Virus record (IMG/VR): IMGVR_UViG_3300046721_000546
Coordinates: 1-49,986 of that record
Source of the DNA: a virus
DNA length: 49,986 bases
Strand: one strand, 5' to 3'
Shown here: piece by piece, positions 8,697 through 42,896 of the stretch
Layout: each line of letters opens with the position of its first letter
How positions within the stretch are numbered: the first letter of the stretch is position 1
Notes under the pieces: generated by a model
Databases searched by the model: none
What the model was told of the DNA's origin: nothing
What the model saw: only the letters and a program-made list of their open reading frames with translations
Translations under genes and position numbers: made by a program

Positions 8697-8884
8697 TCTC
8701 ATTGCTGGTCTGGCTGCTGGTCCTGTGCCTGATCCTGGGCCTGATTATCTGGGTCATTCAGATGATTCCGTTACCGCAACCGTTCGGCACTATCGCCATC
8801 GCGATCGTCGCGGTGATCTTCATTCTGATCCTGGTGTCCTTCCTTCTCGGTGAAGTACCGTTGCCGCGAGGGGGCCTGCGCTGA
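8693..8884 (+). CDS. Two-pass small membrane protein
   Basis: 63 residues, overlapping the terminase stop by 4 nt. It has two hydrophobic segments (residues about 3-24 and 33-52) separated by a Pro-rich turn (MIPLPQPFG). This layout matches a widespread family of tiny bacterial/phage membrane proteins with a conserved PLPxPF turn. A holin role is possible, since two-pass proteins of this size can form membrane lesions, but the family is not known for that. Confidence 0.65.
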   Translation: MISLLVWLLVLCLILGLIIWVIQMIPLPQPFGTIAIAIVAVIFILILVSFLLGEVPLPRGGLR

Positions 8885-9666
8885 TGTCAGGTCCGGTCTA
8901 CGCCTATCACACCACGCCAATCGATGTGACGGCGGAACGGATCGCCGCGCCCACGCCGGGCATGCTGGCGGATGTCAACGCCGTCTACCGGCTTGAGGTC
9001 GCCCCGTTCACGCGCTACCACAGCGACGGCGCCGCGCTTGTGATGATGAGCGATAGCGGGGGCGCCGCGCCCCCCGGCGAAGCCGCGCTGCCGCTGTCCG
9101 GTGGCGCGATGACCGGGCCGCTCTATCTCAATGCCGATCCCGTGGACGCGCCGGATGATTCATCCGACCTGTTGGCCACGACCCGGCATTATGTCGATGC
9201 CGGCAATAACCTGAAGCAAAACACCTGGGGTGTCTCGGACGGTTCCGACGCGGCGGTGGGCGATGTGGGCGAGTACCTCGTGTCCGCCAACGCCGAGGGG
9301 GTCACGTTGCCTAACAACACCCCGGCCGCGGTTTGCTCGCTCGATCTTACCCCGGGTGACTGGGAGATCTGGGGGACGGTGGATTTCCGTCCCGCCGCGG
9401 GCGTCAGCCCGAACGCCATCGCCGCCGCGATCAGTACCCGCCCTGATGCGTTGCCCTCGGATGAAGACCTGATGACCGGTGTCGGCGTGCTGAACATGTT
9501 CGCCACGCCATCTCTCACCTCTGGCCAGCGTCAGGTGCTGATGACCGGGACGTGCCGGTCTAACTCCGCTGCCGCGCTGACCCTGTATCTGGTCGGCCAG
9601 ACGACGCTGGGCGGCACCGGCACGCTCATCGGCAAGGGTTATCTCTGCGCGAGGCGCGTGCGCTAA
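8884..9666 (+). CDS. Short tail-fibre-like protein with GGAMTGPL repeat
   Basis: 260 residues. An N-terminal domain (about 1-60) is followed by the phage-fibre repeat LPLSGGAMTGPLYLNADP and ATTRHYVDA (residues about 70-105). A C-terminal beta-sandwich-like domain (SLDLTPGDWEIWGTVDF to GTLIGKGYLCARRV) is of the kind found at fibre tips. It presumably is a host-contacting virion protein. Its position between packaging motor and portal genes is odd; the other fibres lie 10-20 kb away. Confidence 0.7.
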   Translation: MSGPVYAYHTTPIDVTAERIAAPTPGMLADVNAVYRLEVAPFTRYHSDGAALVMMSDSGGAAPPGEAALPLSGGAMTGPLYLNADPVDAPDDSSDLLATTRHYVDAGNNLKQNTWGVSDGSDAAVGDVGEYLVSANAEGVTLPNNTPAAVCSLDLTPGDWEIWGTVDFRPAAGVSPNAIAAAISTRPDALPSDEDLMTGVGVLNMFATPSLTSGQRQVLMTGTCRSNSAAALTLYLVGQTTLGGTGTLIGKGYLCARRVR

Positions 9667-12423
9667 GTGAGCGACGTTCTCGACGCTCTCCCGCGCGCCG
9701 TCGCGGATCTGATCGCGCCGCACCTCGGCGGCGAGGAGGACAGCCCGACGCTGGCCGCGATCGGCGTGGAGATCGGCGCCAAGCGCGACGAAGCCAAAAT
9801 GGCGCGCAAGATGTCGGGCATCGAGGACGCGTGGCGCGCCGCTGACGAAGCCTACGAGGGCATAGACGACGCGAACCGTGGCGAGGTGGGCGACGGTGGA
9901 CGCTGGGCCAAGCCGATGAGCGTGGATGGCCCGCTGATGACGGAGCGCAGGAACAGGAACCCAGACCACCGATCGACCGCGTTCCTGCGGCTCACCTCGC
10001 GCTATGTGGACGCGGGCGCGGCGAAGCTGGGCGAGATCCTGCTGCCCGCCGACGACAAGGCGTTCTCGTTCCGGGCGATGCCGGTGCCGCGCCTGATCAA
10101 GGCCAAGGAGGACACCAGCCAGGTCGTCCACGGCGACATGGGCGTGCCGCTGACGCGCCCGGCGCAGCCCGGCGAGACCGGCGCGCCCGCTGCCCCACCC
10201 GGCGCACCACCAGCCGGTGGCGACCCCATGGCGGCAGCCGCCGCGGCGTTGCAGGCTGGCGGGCAACCCGCCCCAGGCGCCACGCCAGGCGCACCGCCAC
10301 CGCCAGCGGGCCAACCCGGGCAGGCGCTGACACCGCCGGGCACGCCGCTCGCCCCGGCCTCGCCCACGCCGCCAGGGCACGTCCCGCTGACGGTCAAGGA
10401 CCTCGCCGTCGAAAACATTCAGATGGCGGACGAGAAGGCCAAAGCGGCTGAGACAAGGATCTATAACTGGCTGCTGTCGTGTCAGTATCGCGGCGAGATC
10501 CGCAAGGTGATTTTCGACGCCGCGCGCATTGGCGTGGGCGTCCTGAAGGGTCCGACGCCGCGCACCAAACGCGTGATGGCGTTGACGAAGCAACGCCACG
10601 GCGAGGACCTTAAGGTCATCATCAAGGACACCATCCAGCCGGCGGCGGTGTGGGTGGACCCGTGGAACATTTTCCCCGACCCCGCGTGCGGTGAGAACAT
10701 CCACGACGGCAGCTACATCTTTGAGCGCGACCACATGTCGGCGCGGCAAATCCGCAAGCTTAAGAGCCTGCCCGGTTATATCGGGGACGCGATCGATCAG
10801 GTGCTGGATGAGGGACCGAACAAGGCCTACCGGTCGGAGACCGATCGCGGTCCCGGGTCGAAGCGCGACAAGGATCGTTTCGAAATCTGGTATTTCCAGG
10901 GCACGCTGACCAAGGAGGAGATGCGCGCGATCGACATGGCCTCGGGCCGCGATCCTTACACCGACGAAGATGCCGAGAACGACAAGCGCGACGAGGTGTT
11001 CGTGATCGTGACGTTGATCAACGACACGGTCATCCGCGCCACGATCAATCCGCTCGACAGCGGCTCGTTCCCGTATAACTCCATGCCGTGGCAGCGGCGC
11101 GCCGAAAGCTGGGCCGGCGTCGGCGTGGCGGAACAGATGCGGACGCCGCAACGCATGGTCAACGCCGCCGTTCGGGCGTTGCTCAACAACGCGGGCAAGA
11201 GCGCGGGCAGCCAGTTGGTCATCGACCAGAGCGCGATCATACCGGCGGACGGCCTGTGGACGATCACCCCCGATAAGATCTGGTTCAAGACCAACGACGG
11301 GCCGCAGGACGTGCGGCAGGCGATGATGGCGATCGCGATTCCCAACGTCACCGAGCAACTCATGTCGATTATCACCCTGGCGGAACGGTTCGCCGAGGAA
11401 ACGACATCGATCCCGCTGATCACGCAGGGGCAGTCCGGGTCGACCACGCCAGACACGTTCGGCGCGACGCAATTGCAGAACAACAACGCGAACCAGCTTC
11501 TCCGTTCAATTGGCTACAGTTTTGACGACTTCATCACCGAGCCTCTGATACGCCAGTTTTACGAGTGGCTGTTGCTCGATCCTGATGTCCCCAACGAGGA
11601 AAAGGGCGAATTCGAGGTCGACGCGCACGGCTCCGTCGCGCTGGTCGAGCGCGCCATTCAGGACCAGAGCATCGCGCAGATGGGCAACATGGCGGCGAAC
11701 CCAATTTACGGTATCGATCCGAAAAAATGGGCCGCGCTGTTCCTGAAATCCAAGCGCCTCGATCCCACCGACATGCAATACACCGAGGAAGAGCAAGAGA
11801 AGATGGCCGCGGCGCCGCCGCCCGAGCCGCCCCCGGTCACCGTCGCGCGCATCAACGCCGACACGCAGATCAAGCTTGGCGTGATGAAGCAAACCGCCGA
11901 TCAGCAGACGCAGCAGGCCGAACAGCGCGTGGCCGACGCCGCCAACACGCTGGAGGGGCAGAAGCTGCACGTCCAGGCCACCGTCGATTTGCACGAAATG
12001 GAACAGAAACGCCAACTGGCCATGCTGGACTACGCCAACCGCCACCAGATCAGCCTCGACCAGACCAAGGCGGAACTCGCGCAGACCGCGATGAAGCTAC
12101 AGGTCGAACAGCAACTGAACGCGATCAACAACGCGATCCACACGCGCGACACGCACGCGGCGCATGTGGTCGATGTCCACAAGCACGCGGTCGACACCGC
12201 CGAGGCAGCGCGCCAGCACGCCGTGGACACCGATCACGCGGCGGTCACGCACGCGCTCGACTCGGCGCACGCGGCCCGGCAGGCGGACCAGCAGACGGCG
12301 GAACAGCGGCGCCAGCACACCATCGACACCGGATCGGACCTGTTCAAGCACCAGAACCCGCCAGCCGTTCAGGTCCCCGGCAAAGCGGCGAACGGTCAGG
12401 CGGCATCACAGGTGAACCCATGA
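9667..12423 (+). CDS. Portal protein with Pro-rich insert and His-rich C-terminal coil
   Basis: 918 residues from a GTG 1 nt after the previous stop (TAA G). The core looks like a podovirus-type portal: VWVDPWNIFPDPACGENIHD, then ERDHMSARQIRKLKS, the wing/stem region RMVNAAVRALLNNAGKSAG and long helices to residue 720. The portal ring joins capsid and tail and gates DNA. Residues about 161-244 are a Pro/Ala/Gly insert placed inside the core. From about 738 to 890 the protein is a long coiled coil with repeated His-Ala-Val-Asp-Thr-like units, a plausible internal barrel. It is longer than typical portals (500-750). Confidence 0.85.
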   Translation: MSDVLDALPRAVADLIAPHLGGEEDSPTLAAIGVEIGAKRDEAKMARKMSGIEDAWRAADEAYEGIDDANRGEVGDGGRWAKPMSVDGPLMTERRNRNPDHRSTAFLRLTSRYVDAGAAKLGEILLPADDKAFSFRAMPVPRLIKAKEDTSQVVHGDMGVPLTRPAQPGETGAPAAPPGAPPAGGDPMAAAAAALQAGGQPAPGATPGAPPPPAGQPGQALTPPGTPLAPASPTPPGHVPLTVKDLAVENIQMADEKAKAAETRIYNWLLSCQYRGEIRKVIFDAARIGVGVLKGPTPRTKRVMALTKQRHGEDLKVIIKDTIQPAAVWVDPWNIFPDPACGENIHDGSYIFERDHMSARQIRKLKSLPGYIGDAIDQVLDEGPNKAYRSETDRGPGSKRDKDRFEIWYFQGTLTKEEMRAIDMASGRDPYTDEDAENDKRDEVFVIVTLINDTVIRATINPLDSGSFPYNSMPWQRRAESWAGVGVAEQMRTPQRMVNAAVRALLNNAGKSAGSQLVIDQSAIIPADGLWTITPDKIWFKTNDGPQDVRQAMMAIAIPNVTEQLMSIITLAERFAEETTSIPLITQGQSGSTTPDTFGATQLQNNNANQLLRSIGYSFDDFITEPLIRQFYEWLLLDPDVPNEEKGEFEVDAHGSVALVERAIQDQSIAQMGNMAANPIYGIDPKKWAALFLKSKRLDPTDMQYTEEEQEKMAAAPPPEPPPVTVARINADTQIKLGVMKQTADQQTQQAEQRVADAANTLEGQKLHVQATVDLHEMEQKRQLAMLDYANRHQISLDQTKAELAQTAMKLQVEQQLNAINNAIHTRDTHAAHVVDVHKHAVDTAEAARQHAVDTDHAAVTHALDSAHAARQADQQTAEQRRQHTIDTGSDLFKHQNPPAVQVPGKAANGQAASQVNP

Positions 12424-12605
12424 TCGACTGGTATCAGCACGCGCTTGAGGTCGGCCTTCAGATGGTCGACATGGAGCGCGAGAACGCGTTGCTTAAGCGC
12501 GAGGTGGATATGCTGCGGCGGCTGTTGGTGGAGCGCGCCCAGATCCCGGCGCCGGTCAACCCGTTCCGCGCGTTCCCCGTCGAGCGGCGGCGCGTGGGTG
12601 GGTAG
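12420..12605 (+). CDS. 61-residue leucine-zipper-like protein
   Basis: The ATG at 12420 overlaps the portal stop by 4 nt; the longer open frame from 11727 is antiphase shadow of the portal. Residues about 8-38 form a strong heptad coiled coil (VGLQMVDMERENALLKREVD), followed by a Pro-rich basic end. It may associate with the portal's own coiled-coil end. No function known. Confidence 0.6.
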   Translation: MIDWYQHALEVGLQMVDMERENALLKREVDMLRRLLVERAQIPAPVNPFRAFPVERRRVGG

Positions 12606-14090
12606 GTGCCTTTGATCAACGGCACGGCCAACGCCGACCCGGCGCCGCCGGAACTGACCTCGGGCGGTGGGGTCATGGACTGGCTGTCGGGCATGTTCGG
12701 GGGCGAGCGCGCGTTGCCGACGTTGCCCGCCGAGCCTGCGGGGCCGGCACGGGACGCTTATGCCGGGCAGTCCATGACGATGCCGCGCGCGGACTTCAGG
12801 CCCGGCACGGACATTGGAGGCAGCGTTCCAATGTCCGCCGAGCAAGCAGACCGCATGCGCGAGGCGTCGATGGAGTTGCACGACGCGACGATGCTGGCCG
12901 GCGGTCCCATGGGCGCCGAGGCCGGGACCGGCGCGGTGGCGCTGGCGTCGAGGCGGGGACTGGCGAACCCGCCGCCACCGTCGAGGGGGTTGATCAACGC
13001 GACGGGTGAAGCGCCAGGGCCGGTCTCGATCCTGAAGGACGGCACGATCCTCTCCGGCGAAACGCCGGTCGGACGCGTGAAATACGACCACGGCGATGCA
13101 TCCACGCGCATTGGCGACATCGCCATCAATCCATCGATGCAGAACCAGGGCATCGGCTCTCAGGTGATCCGTCAGATCCAGGACGAGGCGGCGGCGCGCG
13201 GCAATCCGGTCGTGCTGTCCACCGACGCGTTCCGCGGCCCGCAGGCACAGGCGGACCAACTACGGCTCTATCAGCGGCTGGGGTTTGAGCCGAACACCGG
13301 GCCGGGTCAGGTGTCGGAGCGGATTGGCGGCAGGAAGATCGCGGAGGACCTGGTGTGGCAACCGCCCGGCTTCACGGCCTACCACGGCAGCCCCCACGAG
13401 TTTCCGCCAACCGCGCGCAATCCGTTGGGAGAGTTCGACCCGGTAAAGATCGGCACGGGCGAGGGCAGTCAGGCCTTCGGGGTTGGCGCGGGATATCTCG
13501 GTGAGGCGGAAAACACGGCGAAATATTATCGCGACAGGTATGGGCCGCAGGCTGATCCAAAGGTCCAGGCGGCGGGTGACGAGTACAACAACGCCCACGC
13601 CGCGTTCGATGGCTCCGTGGCTGCCCGCGCCAGGGTCGAAGCCGCCGAGCGGGCGTTGCAGGACGCGGAGGCGAACGCGCCACCAGGCCATATGTATGAG
13701 GTTAAGGTCCACGCGGACCCGGCCAGATTCCTCGACTGGGATCGACCGTTGTCGCGGCAGCACCCCGATGTCCAGGCGGCGTTGGCGAAGATCAACCCCG
13801 ATATGTATCACCCATCGTCGGGCGACTACGATCCGTCCGAGAGCGGTCAGATGATCTATCACCGCCTGGCGTCCCGGTCTTCGCAGGCTGATGCGTCGGC
13901 GGCGCTGAACGCGGCCGGTGTTCCCGGGATTCGATACCTTGACGCCGGCAGCCGCGGCGCGGGCGAGGGTAGCCGCAACCTCGTCGTGTTCGATCCCGCC
14001 AGGATGGACATCATCCGCCGGTACGGCCTCGCGGGCCTCATGGCGGGCGCGGGCGCCGCCGCCACGCAGGGGCGAGACCAGACCCAGTGA
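12606..14090 (+). CDS. GNAT acetyltransferase-ADP-ribosyltransferase fusion, polyvalent virion protein
   Basis: 494 residues from a GTG directly after the previous stop. Residues 1-35 carry PLINGTAN and VMDWLSGMFGG, motifs shared with the large protein at 34800. Residues about 150-250 are GNAT-like: IGDIAINPSMQNQGIGSQVI gives the acetyl-CoA loop, then LYQRLGFEP. Residues about 257-470 resemble the ART domain of phage polyvalent proteins: TAYHGSPHEF, then GEGSQAFGVGAGYLGEAENT, HMYEVKVHAD, FLDWDRPLS and GVPGIRYLDAGSRG. Polyvalent proteins are packaged and injected to act early in the host. Both domains probably modify host targets, which are unknown. It lies between portal and scaffold, where a packaged protein would be expected. 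Confidence 0.8.
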   Translation: MPLINGTANADPAPPELTSGGGVMDWLSGMFGGERALPTLPAEPAGPARDAYAGQSMTMPRADFRPGTDIGGSVPMSAEQADRMREASMELHDATMLAGGPMGAEAGTGAVALASRRGLANPPPPSRGLINATGEAPGPVSILKDGTILSGETPVGRVKYDHGDASTRIGDIAINPSMQNQGIGSQVIRQIQDEAAARGNPVVLSTDAFRGPQAQADQLRLYQRLGFEPNTGPGQVSERIGGRKIAEDLVWQPPGFTAYHGSPHEFPPTARNPLGEFDPVKIGTGEGSQAFGVGAGYLGEAENTAKYYRDRYGPQADPKVQAAGDEYNNAHAAFDGSVAARARVEAAERALQDAEANAPPGHMYEVKVHADPARFLDWDRPLSRQHPDVQAALAKINPDMYHPSSGDYDPSESGQMIYHRLASRSSQADASAALNAAGVPGIRYLDAGSRGAGEGSRNLVVFDPARMDIIRRYGLAGLMAGAGAAATQGRDQTQ

Positions 14091-14365
14091 GCGACTTCTT
14101 CCCGCAGCCCGACCCGCCGTTCGACCTCGGCCCGGTGGACCGCGCCAGCCCCCTGTGGCGGCGCCTGGAAGGGTGGCTCGCCAGCGAACTGGACAACGCC
14201 CGGCGGCGCAACGACGCGCCACGCCCGGAACTCGACACCGCGATGCTGCGAGGCGAGATACGCGCGATCAAGCGATTCCTCGCGCTGGGACAAGATCGGC
14301 CAATATTGACCGATGCCGGAGAGGACACACCGCGAGGCGTGTCCGGACTGTGGAGTAACTCATGA
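14087..14365 (+). CDS. Small hypothetical protein
   Basis: 92 residues, GTG overlapping the previous stop (GTGA). It has a helical middle (SPLWRRLEGWLASELDNARR, then a second helix EIRAIKRFLAL) with disordered ends. It is coupled to the scaffold gene by ATGA at 14362-14365. A minor head or packaging factor is possible; no family recognised. Confidence 0.6.
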   Translation: MSDFFPQPDPPFDLGPVDRASPLWRRLEGWLASELDNARRRNDAPRPELDTAMLRGEIRAIKRFLALGQDRPILTDAGEDTPRGVSGLWSNS

Positions 14366-15319: not shown

Positions 15320-16390
15320 ATGGCAATGCAAACGTTTGGCATGACGACTGCCCGACTTGCGAAATTCAAGGGTGAAATACTTTCGCACGCCGTGCCGCAG
15401 GAAGTATTGGGCCGCAGCGGGCGCCAGATCCCAATGCCCAAGAACAACTCTGACACGTACGTCGCGCGCCGCTGGCTGCCCTATGGCGCCACCGGGGCCA
15501 CGGCCTCGTCGCAGAACCAGTTTTTCCAGAACGGGCCGGGCGATCGGGGTAATATCATTGCCCAGGCGCACCAACTCTCCGAGGGCGTGACTCCGCCGCC
15601 GGATTCCATCGTGCCGTTGGACATCACCGTGGTCGTGCAGCAATTCGGCTGCCTCTACGGGTTCTCAGACAAGACCTACAACTTGTATGAGGACGACATC
15701 CCCAAGGCGATGATCGAACAGGCTGGCGAGCGGATGACGTTCGTCAACGAAATGATCGCCTACGGCGCGTTGCGGGCCTGCACCAACGTCTACTACGGCG
15801 GCGCCGGGACATCGATCTCCACGACCAATGGCGGGCTGACGCTGGGCCTCATCCGGCGCATCGCGCGGAATCTTCAGGCCAACCATGGCAAGCCCGTCAA
15901 CAAGGTTCTGAAGGCGAGCCAAAATTTCGGCACCGACCCGGTCGCCGAGGGCTTCACGGTTTACAGCCACACCGACCTTGAGCCTGACATCAGGGACTTG
16001 CCCAACTTCGTGCCCGCCGAGGCCTACGCGTCCGGATCGCCAATCCAGAACGAGATCGGCAAGTGCGAGCGGTTCCGCTTCATCACCTCGGCGGATCTCC
16101 CGTCCATCCAGGACGGTGGCGCTGGGGTGGGCGCCACCGGGCTATCGTCCACCACGGGCGCGAATATCGACATCTACCCGTTCATCGTCACGGCGCAGGA
16201 CGCCTGGGGGCAGATCGCGGTGCGCGGTCTCGGCGCGCTCGATCCGACATTCATTCCGCCCGGCGACAAAACCAAGTCTGACCCGCTGGGCCAGCGCGGT
16301 TACGTCGGCTGCGCGTGGTGGAAGGCCGTGATGATCGAAAATCAAGGCTGGATGGCCGTTGGCAACGTCGGTTCCAAAGTATTGGTCTGA
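15320..16390 (+). CDS. Major capsid protein, N4-gp56 family
   Basis: 356 residues with an AGGAG site 9 nt upstream. The sequence follows the N4-gp56 capsid family: FGMTTARLAKFKGEIL at the start, then NEMIAYGALRACTNVYYGG. The family core FTVYSHTDLEPDIRDLPNFV is followed by IQNEIGKCERFRFITSADLP and the closing IDIYPFIVTAQDAWGQIAVR. It has an HK97-type fold by family knowledge and forms the icosahedral shell. The 103-bp gap before it (15217-15319) holds only the ribosome-binding site and no clear promoter. Confidence 0.92.
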   Translation: MAMQTFGMTTARLAKFKGEILSHAVPQEVLGRSGRQIPMPKNNSDTYVARRWLPYGATGATASSQNQFFQNGPGDRGNIIAQAHQLSEGVTPPPDSIVPLDITVVVQQFGCLYGFSDKTYNLYEDDIPKAMIEQAGERMTFVNEMIAYGALRACTNVYYGGAGTSISTTNGGLTLGLIRRIARNLQANHGKPVNKVLKASQNFGTDPVAEGFTVYSHTDLEPDIRDLPNFVPAEAYASGSPIQNEIGKCERFRFITSADLPSIQDGGAGVGATGLSSTTGANIDIYPFIVTAQDAWGQIAVRGLGALDPTFIPPGDKTKSDPLGQRGYVGCAWWKAVMIENQGWMAVGNVGSKVLV

Positions 16391-16927: not shown

Positions 16928-17428
16928 ATGGCTACCCTCAACTTTGATTATGGTGTCACACAGAACCTGTCCAATGCGGGTGTGGTCGCCGGGACTACCT
17001 CGACCTACACGACGACGGCGGCGACTGTTTGCGCGATCCAGGGCAAGTTCGCGACCCCCCTGGCGGCGCAGACCGCGCAGCCGACGCCAACCACCGACGC
17101 GGTCACCGGGCAACCGTTTGTCGCCGTGCCGCCGAACAGCACATGCGTGCTGGTCCTCGGCGTTAACGCCGCTGGCGTGATCCAGATGGCGCAGGGACAG
17201 ATCCTGCCGACCACCACTGGCGTCACGACCACCGTGGGGGCGTTTCTGCGCGACCCGCAGTTCCCGCCGATCCCCGACAATTTCTGCGCGCTCGCGTATG
17301 CGATTGTGAGAACAGCACCAGCCGCCGCGCCGTGGACGCCGGGCACGGGTAGTTGGACAGCATCCGGCGTAGTTACGACTGCGTTTCAGAACGTTAGCCA
17401 ATTGCCATCTCGGCCACAGCTTTCCTGA
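16928..17428 (+). CDS. Capsid-associated protein, possible decoration protein (copy 2)
   Basis: 166 residues with AGGGGAA upstream. Aligned segments with the previous gene (GVVAGTTSTYTTTAATV; PQFPPIPDNFCALAYAIV) suggest an old tandem duplication. It is beta-rich with no motif for enzymatic function. A minus-strand homing-endonuclease-like gene begins its 3' end 13 bp downstream. Confidence 0.6.
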   Translation: MATLNFDYGVTQNLSNAGVVAGTTSTYTTTAATVCAIQGKFATPLAAQTAQPTPTTDAVTGQPFVAVPPNSTCVLVLGVNAAGVIQMAQGQILPTTTGVTTTVGAFLRDPQFPPIPDNFCALAYAIVRTAPAAAPWTPGTGSWTASGVVTTAFQNVSQLPSRPQLS

Positions 17429-17441
17429 TCTGGTGCCGTCG

Positions 17442-17978
17442 TCAGTCCCAACGGGCAAACGGCCCATGAATTCTGGCGGCGGCGTCCTGATAGGCCTGCG
17501 TGGCTTCCTCGATGGTATCGAAGGTGCCGAGGTATGCTTCCTTGTTCCTGGACCTGATCCTGGCCATGAAACCGCGCCCATGGGCCTGAACACCCTTGAC
17601 GCCAACCTTGTTGTCCCTCCGGACCAAGATGTTGGCCATGTTCAGACCGTTTGTCGCGGCTCGCAGATTGTCGATGCGGTTGTTCGCGGGGTTTCGATCA
17701 GCATGATCGATGGTGTCAGGAAGCGGTTCGCCGTGGGTCAGAAGCCAAATCAACCTATGTGCGTAGTATGGGTGGTTCTGGAGTCGGATGAGGATATATC
17801 CGGCCTTTGTCACCGCCCCCGCGGGCTTCCCTACATTCTTGGCGTTCCATGACCGGAATGTCCGTTCGCTGTCAAACATCTCTCGCGGTCTCGGCAGCCA
17901 GGTCAGGGCGCCGGTTTCGGGGTCATAAGCCAGCAACTGGCGCACGAGGTCGCGAGGCGGTAATGGCTTGGGAAGCAC
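17442..17978 (-). CDS. HNH homing endonuclease with AP2-like C-terminus
   Basis: 178 residues on the minus strand, GTG start with GGAGG 7 nt upstream. The HNH core is AHRLIWLLTHGEPLPDTI, then DHADRNPANNRIDNLR: His74, Asp91-His92 and Asn100 fit the metal-binding nuclease motif. The C-terminal part (about 125-170: VGVKGVQAHGRGFMARI, then LGTFDTIEEATQAYQDAAA) is an AP2/NUMOD-like DNA-binding module. Free-standing homing endonucleases cut phages lacking them and spread by repair. It runs against the structural operon. Confidence 0.9.
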   Translation of the reverse strand: MLPKPLPPRDLVRQLLAYDPETGALTWLPRPREMFDSERTFRSWNAKNVGKPAGAVTKAGYILIRLQNHPYYAHRLIWLLTHGEPLPDTIDHADRNPANNRIDNLRAATNGLNMANILVRRDNKVGVKGVQAHGRGFMARIRSRNKEAYLGTFDTIEEATQAYQDAAARIHGPFARWD

Positions 17979-18094
17979 GTCGATCCTCCACCCTAGGGTC
18001 AGTGTCAGGACGCTCAGAGCCGGTTCAACGGCCTGGGCGTCCGCCTCTGATCATGAATGAACCGTCCCGTAACGGCAACAGTCAGAGGTGATGC

Positions 18095-34799: not shown

Positions 34800-37685
34800 A
34801 TGGCGAGCATCATCAATGGCGCCAACGAAGCGCCGCCGCCCCGGGCCTACGATGAGTACGACGCGAACGGGCAGTGGATCGGGCAGTCGACCGAGGGGTT
34901 CCAGGGACCCAACGCGCGGCCCCGTGACGGCACCGCCGAGGCGGCGCCCAAACCCGGCGTTGACGTGGGCGGTGCGGCGCAGTCGGTGATGGACTGGCTG
35001 GGCGGCATGTTCGGCGGCGGGCCACGGGAGACCCGGCCCATATGGAATCCGGATAACCCGGTGGGTACCGAGACGCTGCAATCGGTGTCTCAGGGGCCAA
35101 CGGAGCGCACCTGGGGCGACACGGCGCGTGACATCCTGCCCAACATCCAGCGCGGCGCGGGGGCTGTTGGCGACTTCCTGACCGCCGATGTCATGACGCC
35201 GATCGCCGACGCTCTCAGCCATCCAGGCGTGTCCCTGCCGGAAGGCGGGAAGTGGATCGAAACCGACAGCGGCAGCGCGGTTCAGATGCCGGATGGGAAA
35301 GTCATCTATCCGGAACAACTTAACCGCCGCGCCGCTTTCCTGCCGATCGAGACGCAACCATATTTTGGCGGGGATTCTTCTCTGGCGATGCCCGGCGCCC
35401 TCGACGTGGTGCCGGCGGCGAGCACGGGCGGGGCCGCGCCGGAGGGCGCTCTCGCCGCCAACGCGTTCCGCCGGGCCGGGCCTCTGGCAGCCAGGAAATT
35501 CGCGCCAGCGGTGCCGGAATTCGTTCCTCCCGCTGAGTTCGCGCCGCATGTCGACTTCGCGCCCGCGGCGCGTCCCGCTTTTGTCGAACCCGGCGCCCCG
35601 CCTGTACTGTCCCGCCTCGGGCCGGGAGAGCTGTTCGACCAGGGTAGGGGCGTGGAAGCCGCCAGAGGGGCCACGCTGGGTCTGACGCCGGAAGCCTATG
35701 ATGAACTCATGGCCGGGCGCGGGCGCCTGTTGGACAGCGGCGTGGCGGCGCTGAACAGGGTCGGCAAGGGTGAGCGCGGCAGCGCCAGCCTGCCCAGCCT
35801 TCGCAACATCCCCCCCGAGGAAGCGTCCGTGGTCGCGTCGACCGACCCGCACCTGGCGTTCAAACGTCCGGACGGGAATTTCGTTGGCGCGCCGCCCAAC
35901 ACGAAGACGATGGAGGACGTGCAGCGCCTGCGCGATGCCTTCGACGCCCAGGTCGAGCGCGGGGCCGGCGGCAGCGACTGGTATTTCAGGGTCCACGCCT
36001 ACATCAATGAACTCTCCGGCGGCGATCCGATCCTGGCGCGCCAGATCGCGGAAGAATGGGCGCTCACGTCGGCGCAGGCCGATCCAGGCACCAACACGGG
36101 CTTCGCCGCGTTCGGGCGGAATTCCCGCGCGGCTGGCACGCCAGCCGACATCGTGCGAACCGGGCAGCAGGCGCGCACGCTCAACGCCGCGCGAGACGCC
36201 CAGGAAGAGTTCCTCGCCAATCAGACCCCGGGCCGCAATTCGCTGCCGAACGACCCGGAACAGACGCTTACCCCTGAGTTGCTCCCGCGCATGCCGCTGG
36301 GCAAAAAGACCGACATTTACCGCCAGCACATGGACCCGACCGCCCCCTACGGTTCCACCGGAACGAACGATATCTGGCATGGCAGGGCGTTTGGTTTCGC
36401 TGACCCGGTGACCGGCGCGGAGTGGAGCAAGGCATTCGGGCCGGCGCAGCATAACTGGCTCGACTATGAGACGATCCAGGCGGTGAACCGCGCCAACGCC
36501 AAAAACCTGGGAGGTCGAAACAACTGGACCGCCGCCGAGATCCAGGCGGCGCCGTGGGTGGCCGGCAAGATGGAGAGCCTCCAGCGCCGGTTTAACCTGT
36601 CCCCGGAGGAGGCGTTACGACGCGCCAACGCGACCTATCCGGACCTCGGGCGCTTCTATGAGGCCTCGATGCCGTATGAGGGGGTGCCCGGCGGCGGCAT
36701 CGGCCTGACGACGGGCAGCATGTCCCCCGAGGACTGGACCGCCGCCATGAGGCGCGTGAACCCCGGCGGCGTCGATCCGCAACTGACCCACATGGGGATC
36801 ATCAACCGCGCGACCCAGCAAGGCGGCTATGGCGGCTGGATCGAGCCGCCTGGGCCACCGCAGATCAATCCGGTGAGTGTCGCCAGACCACAGGTAGGGA
36901 CCCGAACAACGCCTCGGACGCCTGAATCGCCACCGCGCCGGATCGCTGACCCGGCCACCATGACGGCGCTGGACATGGCCGCGCATGTGCGAGGCCTGAG
37001 CGACTTCCAGGCGGGGAGTCCGGTGACCTACTGGGACCGCCGCGCGCCGAGCGGCAACGCGACCAGCGTGACGATCGACCTCGGCAGAGCCACGACGGAA
37101 GCCGAAGCCGCGGCGTTGGTCAGGCTCGCTGACAAATATGGGTTCACGTTCGCCAATACTGGGGAGGGAGCCGGGTTCCTCAATCTGGATCCGGCGTTAA
37201 AGGGCGGTGTCGTCCAAAAGAAGCTGGACACCGGTATGGCCGACGAGATCAAAAAGATCGTTCCAGACGCCACGATCGGGCGAGCGGACACTCTCAGCCA
37301 CAGCAAATACGCCGACTATACCGATTTCGGGTCGAACAACCGCCTTGAGGCGGCAAGGCAGGGTCAGGGTCAGGCCACGCGTTACATGGACGAGCGGCTA
37401 CAGGCCGGTCGCGCCACCGCGCCAGGTGCTTACCGCAGCCTGATGGACGACCCCAACGAGGCCGCGCATTCGCAGGAGATCCTGCGGTTGCTGCGTGACA
37501 GCGGGCAGCTTGGCCAGCGTCCCGACTACGAACTATGGCACCGCCTGATCGCGGAGGGGCGTCTCAGGGACGCTTTGGCGTGGGCGCGAGCAAACGGCTA
37601 CAAAGGATTGCCCGCGGCAGCAGGCGGTGTGGGACTAGGCGGCGCGCTTCAGGGTGGAGAGAATTCCACTGATGCGGGGTCATGA
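34800..37685 (+). CDS. Large polyvalent-type internal virion protein
   Basis: 961 residues. The start is MASIINGANEAPPP, and VMDWLGGMFGGG lies around residue 64, matching the N-terminal signature of the GNAT-ART protein at 12606. Residues about 1-330 are mostly disordered or low-complexity. A helical, conserved part follows (TSAQADPGTNTGFAAFGRNS, then TNDIWHGRAFGFADP and AQHNWLDYETIQAVNRANAK), which resembles the DUF7178-type module in phage polyvalent proteins. The last 250 residues include a possible regulatory part (AAHVRGLSDFQAGSPVTYWD). Packaging and injection with DNA is the expected fate. Exact activity is unknown. Confidence 0.65.
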   Translation: MASIINGANEAPPPRAYDEYDANGQWIGQSTEGFQGPNARPRDGTAEAAPKPGVDVGGAAQSVMDWLGGMFGGGPRETRPIWNPDNPVGTETLQSVSQGPTERTWGDTARDILPNIQRGAGAVGDFLTADVMTPIADALSHPGVSLPEGGKWIETDSGSAVQMPDGKVIYPEQLNRRAAFLPIETQPYFGGDSSLAMPGALDVVPAASTGGAAPEGALAANAFRRAGPLAARKFAPAVPEFVPPAEFAPHVDFAPAARPAFVEPGAPPVLSRLGPGELFDQGRGVEAARGATLGLTPEAYDELMAGRGRLLDSGVAALNRVGKGERGSASLPSLRNIPPEEASVVASTDPHLAFKRPDGNFVGAPPNTKTMEDVQRLRDAFDAQVERGAGGSDWYFRVHAYINELSGGDPILARQIAEEWALTSAQADPGTNTGFAAFGRNSRAAGTPADIVRTGQQARTLNAARDAQEEFLANQTPGRNSLPNDPEQTLTPELLPRMPLGKKTDIYRQHMDPTAPYGSTGTNDIWHGRAFGFADPVTGAEWSKAFGPAQHNWLDYETIQAVNRANAKNLGGRNNWTAAEIQAAPWVAGKMESLQRRFNLSPEEALRRANATYPDLGRFYEASMPYEGVPGGGIGLTTGSMSPEDWTAAMRRVNPGGVDPQLTHMGIINRATQQGGYGGWIEPPGPPQINPVSVARPQVGTRTTPRTPESPPRRIADPATMTALDMAAHVRGLSDFQAGSPVTYWDRRAPSGNATSVTIDLGRATTEAEAAALVRLADKYGFTFANTGEGAGFLNLDPALKGGVVQKKLDTGMADEIKKIVPDATIGRADTLSHSKYADYTDFGSNNRLEAARQGQGQATRYMDERLQAGRATAPGAYRSLMDDPNEAAHSQEILRLLRDSGQLGQRPDYELWHRLIAEGRLRDALAWARANGYKGLPAAAGGVGLGGALQGGENSTDAGS

Positions 37686-40094: not shown

Positions 40095-42896
40095 ATGCCA
40101 GACCTCAACATGGCGACGGTTCGGCAGCAATTCCCGCAGTATAACGACCTGTCGGACGATCAACTCGCGCAGGGACTGCACGACAAGTTCTACAAAGACA
40201 TGCCGTTCGATACGTTCGCGTCGAAGATCGGCTATTCGCAGGCGCCCCCGCCCACGATGGGCGTCGAGGGCATGGTCGGGTTCCCCACGATCGGCGGGCC
40301 GCAAACCCAGATCGGCGCCGACGTGAACGCTCTCGCGCAGGGCGCCGTGGGCGGCACGGGCGGCATCGTCAGCGGCGTGGGCCGCACGTATCAGGAAGCT
40401 GGCCCGCGTATGGCCAGGGCGCAGACGGCGACGATGGACGCCATCGATCGCGGCGAGACCGTCCCCGACCAGCAAGACCCTATCGGCTACCAGTACCTGT
40501 CCCCCGAGCAACGCGCCAAGGCACGCGCGGATCTCGGTGGCGCGAAGGATGAACTGGAGGCACGCGAGCCTAATGCCCTGATGCGCGCCGGTCGCGCGGT
40601 GCAGGGCTTTGGCCAGAGCGCGTTCCCGGTCGACCCGGCGCTGGAGGGGCGGCAGACGGGCATCGCCCGCATGATCGGCGGCGCCGGTCCCGTGCTGGCC
40701 GCGGGTGCCCTCGGGACCGCCGTGGGTGGACCCGGCGGCGGCATGCTGGCGAGCATGGCGGCGGTCGGCTCGCAGACCTACGATGCCACCTACCAGGAAG
40801 CGATCGGCAAAGGTCAGACCCCCGAACAGGCAGACGACGCCGCGGGCAAGGCCGCGATGGGCCAGGCGATCATCATGACCGTGCCGCTGGCCAGGATCAT
40901 CCCGCGCGTGCCGATGGATCTACGCGAGGGGTTGGTCAAAACATTGGTGAACCTCGGCCAGAACGGCGTGGAGTTCAGCGCCGGCAACACGCTGGGCACG
41001 GTCGTCAACAACTACGTCGCACAGCAGAGTTTCGACCCGAAGCGCGGCCTGATGGACGGCACCCAGGACGCGGCGCTGGAGGGATTCGTCGCCGGCCTCG
41101 TCATCCCCTCGACGGTCAACGCCGCCCAACGCATCGCGGAGAGCGCGCGGACGGCGCCGCCGCCCATCGCCGACGTGATCAAGCCGGTTCTCGACGCGCC
41201 CGATGTCGAGACAGCCGTCAGGGCAGCGTCGGACGTGGTCAGCGCGGACCCGGCCACCGACGCGCGGGCGTCGGATCTCTACCAGCGGGTGAATCAGGCC
41301 ACGGCGCCCGGCCCGGCCACCGAGGCCAGGGATACGGCGGCGGCGACGGCGGCGACCGCCCAGGCGCGCGAGGTGGCGGCGGGCAGAGAAGAGCCGCCAC
41401 CCGTGCCCTACAGGCCCATGACCGCCGCCGAGGTGCAGGCGCGCGACGGCGGCACGATCGAGGAAGCGTTCATAACCGCCCGCCGGGAAAACGCCGCGGG
41501 CGCGGCCAACCAGCCAGCCATGGTGCCGCCCGGCACCCCGCCACCCCTGCTGCCGCGCATCATGGACCTGTTGCGCGAGACCGACCGCCAGGAAGCCGAG
41601 CGACCGGCCATGGTGCCGCCGACCTCGACCACCGATCCGCTCACCGGGCGGACGACCTCGATCACGCCGCCGCCGCCAGAACAGACCATGCCGATCCCGG
41701 GAACGCGATCGCCGGTCGCGCCGCCGCCTGTCCCCACACCCGACATGACCGGATCAGTCGGCGCCGCCGCCTCGCGCGAGGGGACACCCGCCGCCGATCT
41801 GTTGCCGACCGCATCCGAAGCGGACAGCATCCGCCAGCAAGGCGAGATCGAGCGGCTCGCCACGCCACCCCGCCCCGGCGACAAAACGGTCTACATCAAA
41901 GGCGCCGACCCGACCCTGGCCGAGGTCACGGGCGACCCGGTCGTCGCCATGGAGCAGGCCTATAACCGCCAACAGCCGGTGGCGAACCCGCACCACGTCG
42001 AACGGGAGACCAGAGCCGCTGACGCGATAACAGAGGAGTACGCCAACACGGCGGGCGCGAAGATCACGCTCGATCGCATGGAAGAGAAGCAGGACCTTCA
42101 GGCGCAGGCGGATATCAAAAAGGTATTCGGCGAGCCGGGATCGCAACGGCCCCCGGCGGACCCATCGTCTACCCTCAGACTGATGGACGACTTTCTGGAC
42201 GATCCACGGCATGCGGAACGCAATTCCGTCGTCAAGATACTTCAGCCCCTGAGAGACAAGTTTTACGACGCGGACGGCAATCTAAAGACCGATCCCTACA
42301 CGCTCTATGGCATCGGTGAGCATATCAACGACCTGTTGAACGGAGTCGGCGATACTGAAACGGTCGGTTCAGCACGCGTGCTGAAACGCGAACTGACGAT
42401 GATCAAGAACGATCTCTATAACCGCATCGAGGACGTGGCGCCGGGGTTCGCGGAATATCGCGCCAACTACGCCAGGGCGGCGAGCGAGATCGCCGCGATG
42501 CGCTTCCTGCAAGAGAACAGACTGAGGTTGCTAAACGCTAATTTGCGAATAACCCCAGCGAAATGGTTCGGCTTCATGCGTGACGTGATCGAGGGGCGAG
42601 GCGATCCGATGGACCCGGCTTATGGACTGTCCGAGGCGCAGATGGATCGGTTGTGGAACATAACCGACCATGTGAAGCGGCAGATGTTCCTTGAGACCGG
42701 GAAACCCAGAGGTTCATGGACCTCAATGATGCAGGAAATGGGCGAGCGTTTCGGTGAAGCGGCGGCGCATGCGGTGGTGGGGCACGCGGTTCCCGTCTTT
42801 GGCAATATCGGCGTCAAAATGGGCACGTCGTATCTGCGAAACCGTCGCGCCGAGAAAGAAATGCAGCGATTTCTGTATCCGGATCTTAGCGAATAA
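40095..42896 (+). CDS. Large internal virion protein, polyvalent type
   Basis: 933 residues. The N-terminal module MATVRQQFPQYNDLSDDQLA, then HDKFYKDMPFDTFASKIGY, is a common entry domain of large phage ejection/DarB-like proteins. A membrane-active Gly/Ala segment lies at about 195-220 (GPVLAAGALGTAVGGPGGG). The middle is Pro/Thr-rich and disordered (about 350-600). The C-terminal helical domain (about 690-930) includes VVKILQPLRDKFYDADGNLK and FGFMRDVIEGRGDPMDPAYG. It probably forms part of the ejection apparatus. No nuclease or methylase motif was seen. Confidence 0.65.
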   Translation: MPDLNMATVRQQFPQYNDLSDDQLAQGLHDKFYKDMPFDTFASKIGYSQAPPPTMGVEGMVGFPTIGGPQTQIGADVNALAQGAVGGTGGIVSGVGRTYQEAGPRMARAQTATMDAIDRGETVPDQQDPIGYQYLSPEQRAKARADLGGAKDELEAREPNALMRAGRAVQGFGQSAFPVDPALEGRQTGIARMIGGAGPVLAAGALGTAVGGPGGGMLASMAAVGSQTYDATYQEAIGKGQTPEQADDAAGKAAMGQAIIMTVPLARIIPRVPMDLREGLVKTLVNLGQNGVEFSAGNTLGTVVNNYVAQQSFDPKRGLMDGTQDAALEGFVAGLVIPSTVNAAQRIAESARTAPPPIADVIKPVLDAPDVETAVRAASDVVSADPATDARASDLYQRVNQATAPGPATEARDTAAATAATAQAREVAAGREEPPPVPYRPMTAAEVQARDGGTIEEAFITARRENAAGAANQPAMVPPGTPPPLLPRIMDLLRETDRQEAERPAMVPPTSTTDPLTGRTTSITPPPPEQTMPIPGTRSPVAPPPVPTPDMTGSVGAAASREGTPAADLLPTASEADSIRQQGEIERLATPPRPGDKTVYIKGADPTLAEVTGDPVVAMEQAYNRQQPVANPHHVERETRAADAITEEYANTAGAKITLDRMEEKQDLQAQADIKKVFGEPGSQRPPADPSSTLRLMDDFLDDPRHAERNSVVKILQPLRDKFYDADGNLKTDPYTLYGIGEHINDLLNGVGDTETVGSARVLKRELTMIKNDLYNRIEDVAPGFAEYRANYARAASEIAAMRFLQENRLRLLNANLRITPAKWFGFMRDVIEGRGDPMDPAYGLSEAQMDRLWNITDHVKRQMFLETGKPRGSWTSMMQEMGERFGEAAAHAVVGHAVPVFGNIGVKMGTSYLRNRRAEKEMQRFLYPDLSE

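What the first reader, a model, noticed from the sequence alone, without database searches (positions are those of the whole stretch)
12606..14090. GNAT-ART fusion packaged between portal and scaffold genes
Two protein-modifying domains in one chain, with a shared virion-type N-terminus, suggests an injected effector able to acetylate and ADP-ribosylate host targets. The ART has a replaced residue pattern (GVGAGYLGEAE) compared with common versions, so substrate or activity may differ.
Basis: partly seen in the sequence, partly recalled or inferred. Interest (0 to 1): 0.6.

Follow-up and report, generated by a model that had tools for sequence, protein, structure and literature searches.

The report
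Phage acetyltransferase–ADP-ribosyltransferase effector
A soil phage carries, among its head-building genes, one protein that joins two predicted protein-modifying enzymes, most likely loaded into the particle and injected to tamper with the bacterial host; this type of protein was described in 2017, but here one of the two enzymes sits in a slot that close relatives fill with something else or leave empty.

Summary
Window 12606-14090 is a 494-aa ORF: a ~136-aa leader, a GNAT domain (aa ~149-229, above Pfam's cut-off) and an ART domain (aa 255-478). It lies between an SU10-type portal gene and a scaffold-position gene upstream of the major head protein. Five further contigs carry the same full ORF at 99.9-100% DNA identity, so an assembly chimera is unlikely. 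GNAT+ART fusions in phage polyvalent proteins were described by Iyer et al. 2017, including one (BAR32501) later annotated as lying in a head gene cluster, so this is a new member of a known kind. The 'replaced' GVGAGYL motif is a one-residue insertion shared with five other loci. Catalytic His260 and Tyr297 are invariant in 84 relatives. The true oddity is family-wide: the strand-5 position that is usually Glu/Asp/Gln in this ART clade is an invariant Asn458. The freshest finding is modularity. In phages ~95% identical through portal and leader, DNA identity stops at 13018 and resumes at 13362, exactly around the GNAT, and the slot holds another ART, an unassigned domain or nothing. A second gene (34800-37685) shares a short leader motif. 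Virion packaging, injection, activity and targets are inferred, not shown.

The parts
12606..14090 (+). ORF of 494 aa: leader + GNAT + ART + C-terminal tail
   Evidence: five other contigs carry the full ORF at 99.9-100% DNA identity
12606..13013 (+). N-terminal leader (aa 1-136), predicted mostly disordered with two helices; kept when the middle domain is swapped
   Evidence: 93-94% aa identity to the leaders of L010 copy 1 and L013; dN/dS 0.10; low pLDDT
12672..12704 (+). leader motif VMDWLSGMFGG (aa 23-33), shared with the protein at 34800
   Evidence: 17/31 identical residues in the surrounding stretch, E=9e-6; only these two window ORFs carry it
13019..13361 (+). exchangeable slot (aa ~139-252), filled here by a RimI-like GNAT; acetyl-CoA motif QNQGIG, Tyr in LYQRLGF
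   Evidence: DNA match to relatives stops at 13018/13008 and resumes at 13362/13365; Pfam PF13508/PF00583; Foldseek GNATs; NCBIfam rimI E=4e-4
13368..14039 (+). ART domain (aa 255-478), ART-PolyVal-type
   Evidence: alignment of 84 ARTs, AF2, Foldseek viral library, Pfam on relatives
13383..13385 (+). His260, ART strand-1 catalytic His
   Evidence: 84/84 conserved; in strand 256-262 of the model
13494..13496 (+). Tyr297, ART catalytic Tyr, preceded by a one-residue insertion (GVGAGY)
   Evidence: 84/84 conserved; in strand 296-299
13941..13943 (+). Asp446, invariant, possible third catalytic or structural residue
   Evidence: 83/83 of sequences with a letter there
13977..13979 (+). Asn458, invariant, at the strand-5 position usually Glu/Asp/Gln in the ART clade
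   Evidence: 81/81 of sequences with a letter there; generic ARTs mostly Glu
14019..14087 (+). C-terminal tail (aa 472-494, RYGLAGLMAGAGAAATQGRDQTQ), Gly/Ala-rich hydrophobic then Gln-rich
   Evidence: similar tail in 50/65 short ART ORFs but 1/19 long ones; 28 of 29 portal-adjacent ones
9667..12423 (+). portal gene (context)
   Evidence: SU10_portal E=1.6e-15; phrog_332, phrog_1216
12420..12605 (+). 61-aa ORF between portal and effector, overlapping the portal stop (ATGA)
   Evidence: no family searched or assigned
14087..14365 (+). 92-aa ORF overlapping the effector stop, conserved next to it in L010 and L013
14362..15216 (+). scaffold-position gene (assigned by position only)
   Evidence: no significant profile
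15320..16390 (+). major head protein (context)
   Evidence: phrog_1357 E=7.9e-54
34800..37685 (+). 961-aa protein of unknown function sharing the leader motif and a Gly/Ala-rich C-terminus

Best explanation
It is a small polyvalent effector of a short-tailed phage. The gene is expressed late with the portal and head genes. The leader, and perhaps the hydrophobic C-terminal tail, direct the protein into the procapsid, and it is ejected into the next host with the DNA. There the ART transfers ADP-ribose from NAD+ to one or more host macromolecules, and the RimI-like GNAT acetylates a host protein, so that host machinery or defence is altered before phage genes are expressed. The GNAT is an interchangeable module: relatives fill the same slot with a second ART, an unassigned domain or nothing. 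Shown: the ORF, domain assignments, gene order, conserved His/Tyr, purifying selection, and the swap. Inferred: packaging, injection, catalysis and targets.
For: GNAT above curated cut-offs with GNAT fold matches. ART family with His, Tyr, Asp446, Ser449-Arg450 and Asn458 (near-)invariant over 84 domains. Gene between portal and major head protein here; same slot in Sulfitobacter phage phiGT1; portal within 1.5 kb in 29 of 65 short relatives (PHROG portal calls for several). Portal and adaptor both match SU10, a short-tailed phage. ART under purifying selection, dN/dS 0.28-0.36. Slot swap with constant leader and C-terminus. Published precedents: GNAT next to ART in phage polyvalent proteins (PMC5512222); about 44% of phage ARTs in contexts suggesting head packaging (PMC9503650).
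Against: No direct evidence that the protein is in virions. The window ART passes no Pfam model by itself and the full model has no significant PDB fold match. Asn458 stands where an acidic residue or Gln is usual, so activity is uncertain. The GNAT model is of moderate confidence. The shared leader motif is short and is not kept in one homologue of the 961-aa protein (L197).
Confidence: 0.62

Rival explanations
1. One or both domains are enzymatically dead: a pseudo-ART (Asn instead of Glu/Asp/Gln) kept as a binding module, so that only the GNAT, or neither, modifies host proteins.
For: Asn458 invariant across the family where generic ARTs mostly have Glu; the clade is defined as H-Y-[EDQ].
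Against: His260, Tyr297, Asp446, Ser449 and Arg450 are all (near-)invariant, more than a dead fold should need; dN/dS 0.28-0.36; the ART profile's best PDB hit is PARP12 (weak, E=0.41), from a PARP subfamily known from general knowledge to mono-ADP-ribosylate without the Glu.
Confidence: 0.17
2. The protein is made late and acts in the producing cell or as a minor head component, without being injected.
For: Only gene position and leader similarity point to the virion; no signal has been proven.
Against: Relatives of the same ART sit inside giant proteins in virion gene clusters; general precedent of T4 Alt and P1 Dar proteins (PMC5512222); a late-acting enzyme gives no obvious reason for module swapping beside a constant leader and tail.
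Confidence: 0.16
3. The GNAT is a virion-delivered counter-defence acetyltransferase that works like the anti-CRISPR AcrVA5, while the ART blunts another host response; the slot changes with the defences of local hosts.
For: The top solved fold match of the GNAT model is AcrVA5 (E=2.6e-4, 25% identity over 97 columns), also top for the small GNAT profile (8.2e-6). The slot is swapped between close relatives.
Against: By its own sequence AcrVA5 ranks only 14th (E=0.27), behind RibT, YncA and RimI; both are compact GNATs, which favours the match; no target is known.
Confidence: 0.1
4. The fusion is an assembly artefact joining a GNAT gene to an ART gene.
For: Metagenomic contig.
Against: Full fusion at 99.9-100% DNA identity in L002-L006 and partial in L009; an independent GNAT-ART fusion in L066 and multiple GNAT+ART domains in isolate Tunturi_5.
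Confidence: 0.01

Closest known systems
GNAT+ART phage polyvalent proteins (Iyer et al. 2017, PMC5512222; e.g. BAR32501.1)
   Same: RimI-like GNAT next to an H-Y-type ART in one polypeptide, encoded among phage virion genes
   Different: BAR32501 could not be compared by sequence here; the window protein is small (494 aa, two catalytic domains) and its GNAT is a demonstrably exchangeable module
Sulfitobacter phage phiGT1 gp5 (QLB38217.1)
   Same: same place between portal and scaffold genes; homologous ART, conserved His/Tyr/Asp/Asn and C-terminal tail; its record names BAR32501 as closest phage homologue
   Different: 387 aa, no GNAT; different leader
ART-PolyVal (PF18760) / Tox-ART-HYD2 clade
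   Same: His and Tyr motifs; family members pass the Pfam cut-off
   Different: window ART itself below detection; long helical insert; Asn instead of an acidic residue or Gln at strand 5
Tunturiibacter phage Tunturi_5 gp273 (XOB77716.1)
   Same: homologous ART plus GNAT-like domains in one chain
   Different: 1489 aa with NUDIX, further ARTs and several GNATs; no C-terminal tail
T4 Alt
   Same: what it would work like: ART packaged in the head and injected with the DNA
   Different: R-S-E catalytic type, unrelated clade (PMC5512222); no GNAT
AcrVA5 (PDB 6iuf)
   Same: compact phage GNAT; closest solved fold to the GNAT model
   Different: stand-alone, weak sequence similarity (E=0.27); anti-CRISPR function not tested here

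Membership tests
Phage polyvalent proteins (Iyer 2017) | two or more biochemically unrelated domains in one polypeptide | tested here: met
   GNAT + ART
Phage polyvalent proteins (Iyer 2017) | encoded near virion / portal-terminase genes | tested here: met
   portal upstream, major head protein downstream
Phage polyvalent proteins (Iyer 2017) | delivered with the DNA into the host | not testable with these tools
   needs virion proteomics or translocation assay
ART-PolyVal / H-Y-[EDQ] ARTs | His in strand 1 | tested here: met
   His260, 84/84, strand 256-262
ART-PolyVal / H-Y-[EDQ] ARTs | Tyr in strand 2 | tested here: met
   Tyr297, 84/84, strand 296-299
ART-PolyVal / H-Y-[EDQ] ARTs | Glu, Asp or Gln in strand 5 | tested here: inconclusive
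   Asn458 by motif position, invariant in the family; the profile alignment covered only the His-Tyr half; Asp446 is also invariant and could take the role
ART-PolyVal / H-Y-[EDQ] ARTs | match to PF18760 above its cut-off | tested here: not met
   window domain: no match; relatives L020, L040 and L075 pass in the homologous domain; so a distant relative through them, not a direct match
GNAT superfamily | Pfam GNAT model above curated cut-off | tested here: met
   PF13508 35.9 vs 27; PF00583 32.2 vs 20.7
GNAT superfamily | Q/R-x-x-G-x-G/A acetyl-CoA motif and GNAT fold | tested here: met
   QNQGIG; Foldseek top hits are GNATs, model pLDDT ~70
T4 Alt/VIP2 ARTs | R-S-E catalytic triad | tested here: not met
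   H-Y type motifs instead
AcrVA5-type anti-CRISPR | acetylates and inactivates Cas12a | not testable with these tools
   fold similarity only; own-sequence E=0.27

The most novel reading that the evidence does not exclude
The portal-adjacent gene is a general cargo-loading slot: a constant leader and a conserved hydrophobic C-terminal tail form a head-packaging/ejection address, between which phages exchange effector cassettes (GNAT, second ART, ParB-like, none) by recombination as host defences change, as bacteria do with polymorphic toxins. The shared leader motif would address a second protein (34800-37685) to the same compartment.
Probability: 0.35. Interest if true: 0.65.

Novelty: new member of a known kind. 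Interest (0 to 1): 0.37.

Why it matters
If true, it adds a compact, tractable example to the polyvalent proteins, most of which are giant and hard to study. It also shows module exchange within a group of ~95% identical phages, which makes the packaging address testable by tag swapping in a laboratory phage. Its Asn458 is a concrete question about catalysis outside H-Y-[EDQ].

Tried and rejected
Assembly chimera: rejected, the same fusion is in L002-L006. 'Replaced catalytic motif': rejected, the Tyr is intact and the insertion is shared. Defence-system models: no PADLOC hit. Foldseek of the full model against PDB: nothing significant, probably because 175 residues are below pLDDT 50 and the ART has a long insert; the viral library gave 15 clear hits. 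phrog_873 'endolysin' hit: the match lies in the C-terminal part of a 1277-residue profile, over the last half of the ART, so the name does not transfer. AcrVA5 as parent family: not claimed, since the sequence support comes mainly from other GNATs in the small profile. Scan for GNAT relatives in viral contigs returned only copies of the same phage; none in isolate phages. Leader scan found only this phage group plus the more distant L017 contig. Third catalytic residue: the profile comparison covered only the His-Tyr half, so Asn458 versus Asp446 stays open. phiGT1 virion mass spectrometry exists, but its Table S3 could not be read here.

Full report
What is there. The ORF at 12606-14090 (+) is real: 494 aa, starting at a GTG directly after the stop of a 61-aa ORF that itself overlaps the portal stop. 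The window is an IMG/VR virus record. Portal (SU10_portal, E=1.6e-15) and adaptor (SU10_adaptor, E=9.4e-16) suggest a short-tailed phage. Downstream come a 92-aa ORF, a scaffold-position ORF without significant profile, and the major head protein (phrog_1357, E=7.9e-54). Five other contigs (L002-L006) carry the full ORF at 99.9-100% DNA identity.

Domains. The GNAT passes two Pfam cut-offs; its nearest named family is rimI (E=4e-4); a GNAT-only model (pLDDT ~70) matches solved GNATs, AcrVA5 first. By the window sequence alone AcrVA5 ranks 14th, so this is a lead only. The ART is not seen by Pfam in the window, but it aligns over full length with domains from 83 other ORFs, some of which pass the ART-PolyVal cut-off. 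The ART part of the AF2 model is mostly above pLDDT 90, and Foldseek against viral models gives 15 hits at E<=1e-3, several named as polyvalent or ART-PolyVal-like proteins.

Active site. His260 and Tyr297 are present in 84/84, Asp446 in 83/83 and Asn458 in 81/81 sequences that have a letter there. GVGAGYLGEAE is the family's GHG-LYFAE with one inserted residue before the Tyr, shared with L010, L013, L017, L018 and L039, so it is a sub-family trait. The reviewed clade is H-Y-[EDQ] (PMC9503650), and the strand-5 residue of generic polyvalent ARTs is mostly Glu. Asn in this family is therefore the true peculiarity. PARP12, the best though weak PDB sequence hit (E=0.41), belongs to a PARP subfamily that from general knowledge catalyses mono-ADP-ribosylation without that Glu.

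Modularity. Compared with L010 and L013, window DNA is about 95% identical through portal and leader, up to 13018 and 13008. There is no match across the GNAT. Identity returns at 13365 and 13362 at the start of the ART (86-90%), the ART interior is variable, and the end of the gene through the head genes is 93-97% identical in L010 and, as far as its contig reaches, in L013. L010 has two tandem copies: one without a middle domain, one whose slot holds a second ART-PolyVal domain (aa 129-252, E=2.6e-5). L013 holds a third, unassigned segment. More distant relatives have a GNAT (L066), a second ART (L040) or a weakly matched ParB-like segment (L067) before the same ART. Leader dN/dS is 0.10 and ART 0.28-0.36, so both are under constraint.

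Packaging hints. Short relatives (<=600 aa) have a portal within 1.5 kb in 29 of 65 cases and the K/R-Y-G hydrophobic tail in 50 of 65; long ones (>600 aa) 0 of 19 and 1 of 19; 28 of the 29 portal-adjacent ones have the tail (some loci are near-duplicates, and portal detection used home-made profiles, partly confirmed by PHROG portal hits). The window's 961-aa protein at 34800 shares 17/31 residues around VMDWL.GMFGG (E=9e-6), but its 59%-identical homologue L197 lacks the motif. These are correlations; nothing here shows a protein inside a particle.

Known or new. Iyer et al. 2017 (PMC5512222) described phage polyvalent proteins in which a RimI-like GNAT typically neighbours this kind of ART, naming BAR32501. 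The phiGT1 record cites BAR32501 as the closest phage homologue of its own portal-scaffold ART protein. The finding is therefore a new member of a known kind. The within-group cassette swap, the shared tail of the portal-adjacent class and the invariant Asn are details I did not find in the papers read, but the search was limited to a held library.

Mechanism, with status. Late expression with head genes: inferred from gene order. Loading via leader and/or tail: inferred. Ejection: inferred from gene context and precedent (T4 Alt, P1 Dar proteins, discussed in PMC5512222). NAD+-dependent modification: inferred from family, with the Asn caveat. Acetylation of a protein: inferred from RimI-like affinity. 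Targets: unknown.

Noticed in passing
window 17350-18093 (ORF 17442-17978, - strand): 744-bp segment with a minus-strand HNH-endonuclease-like ORF, absent from otherwise near-identical contig L007 and from L011; looks like a mobile homing-endonuclease insertion in the head operon. Named by eye, no profile run.
   Followed up: partly
window 34800-37685: 961-aa protein sharing the VMDWLxGMFGG leader motif with the GNAT-ART protein and ending in a similar Gly/Ala-rich tail; no Pfam, PHROG, NCBIfam or PADLOC match.
   Followed up: partly
window 40095-42896: 933-aa protein whose first 50 residues match the start of the giant profile phrog_10691 and which weakly matches the virion RNA polymerase profile; possible internal virion protein.
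   Followed up: no
window 9160-11472 (- strand): 770-aa open frame opposite the portal gene; very likely a mechanical effect of high GC, since the portal is the coding strand.
   Followed up: no
window 8884-9666 versus L010 713-1771 and L013 1975-3033: tail-fibre-like gene between terminase and portal; DNA identity breaks at 8886 and resumes at 9668, so it is also exchanged between these close relatives.
   Followed up: partly
L010 4951-7942: tandem duplication of the effector gene with different ARTs: copy 1 resembles the ART of L013, copy 2 that of the window.
   Followed up: yes
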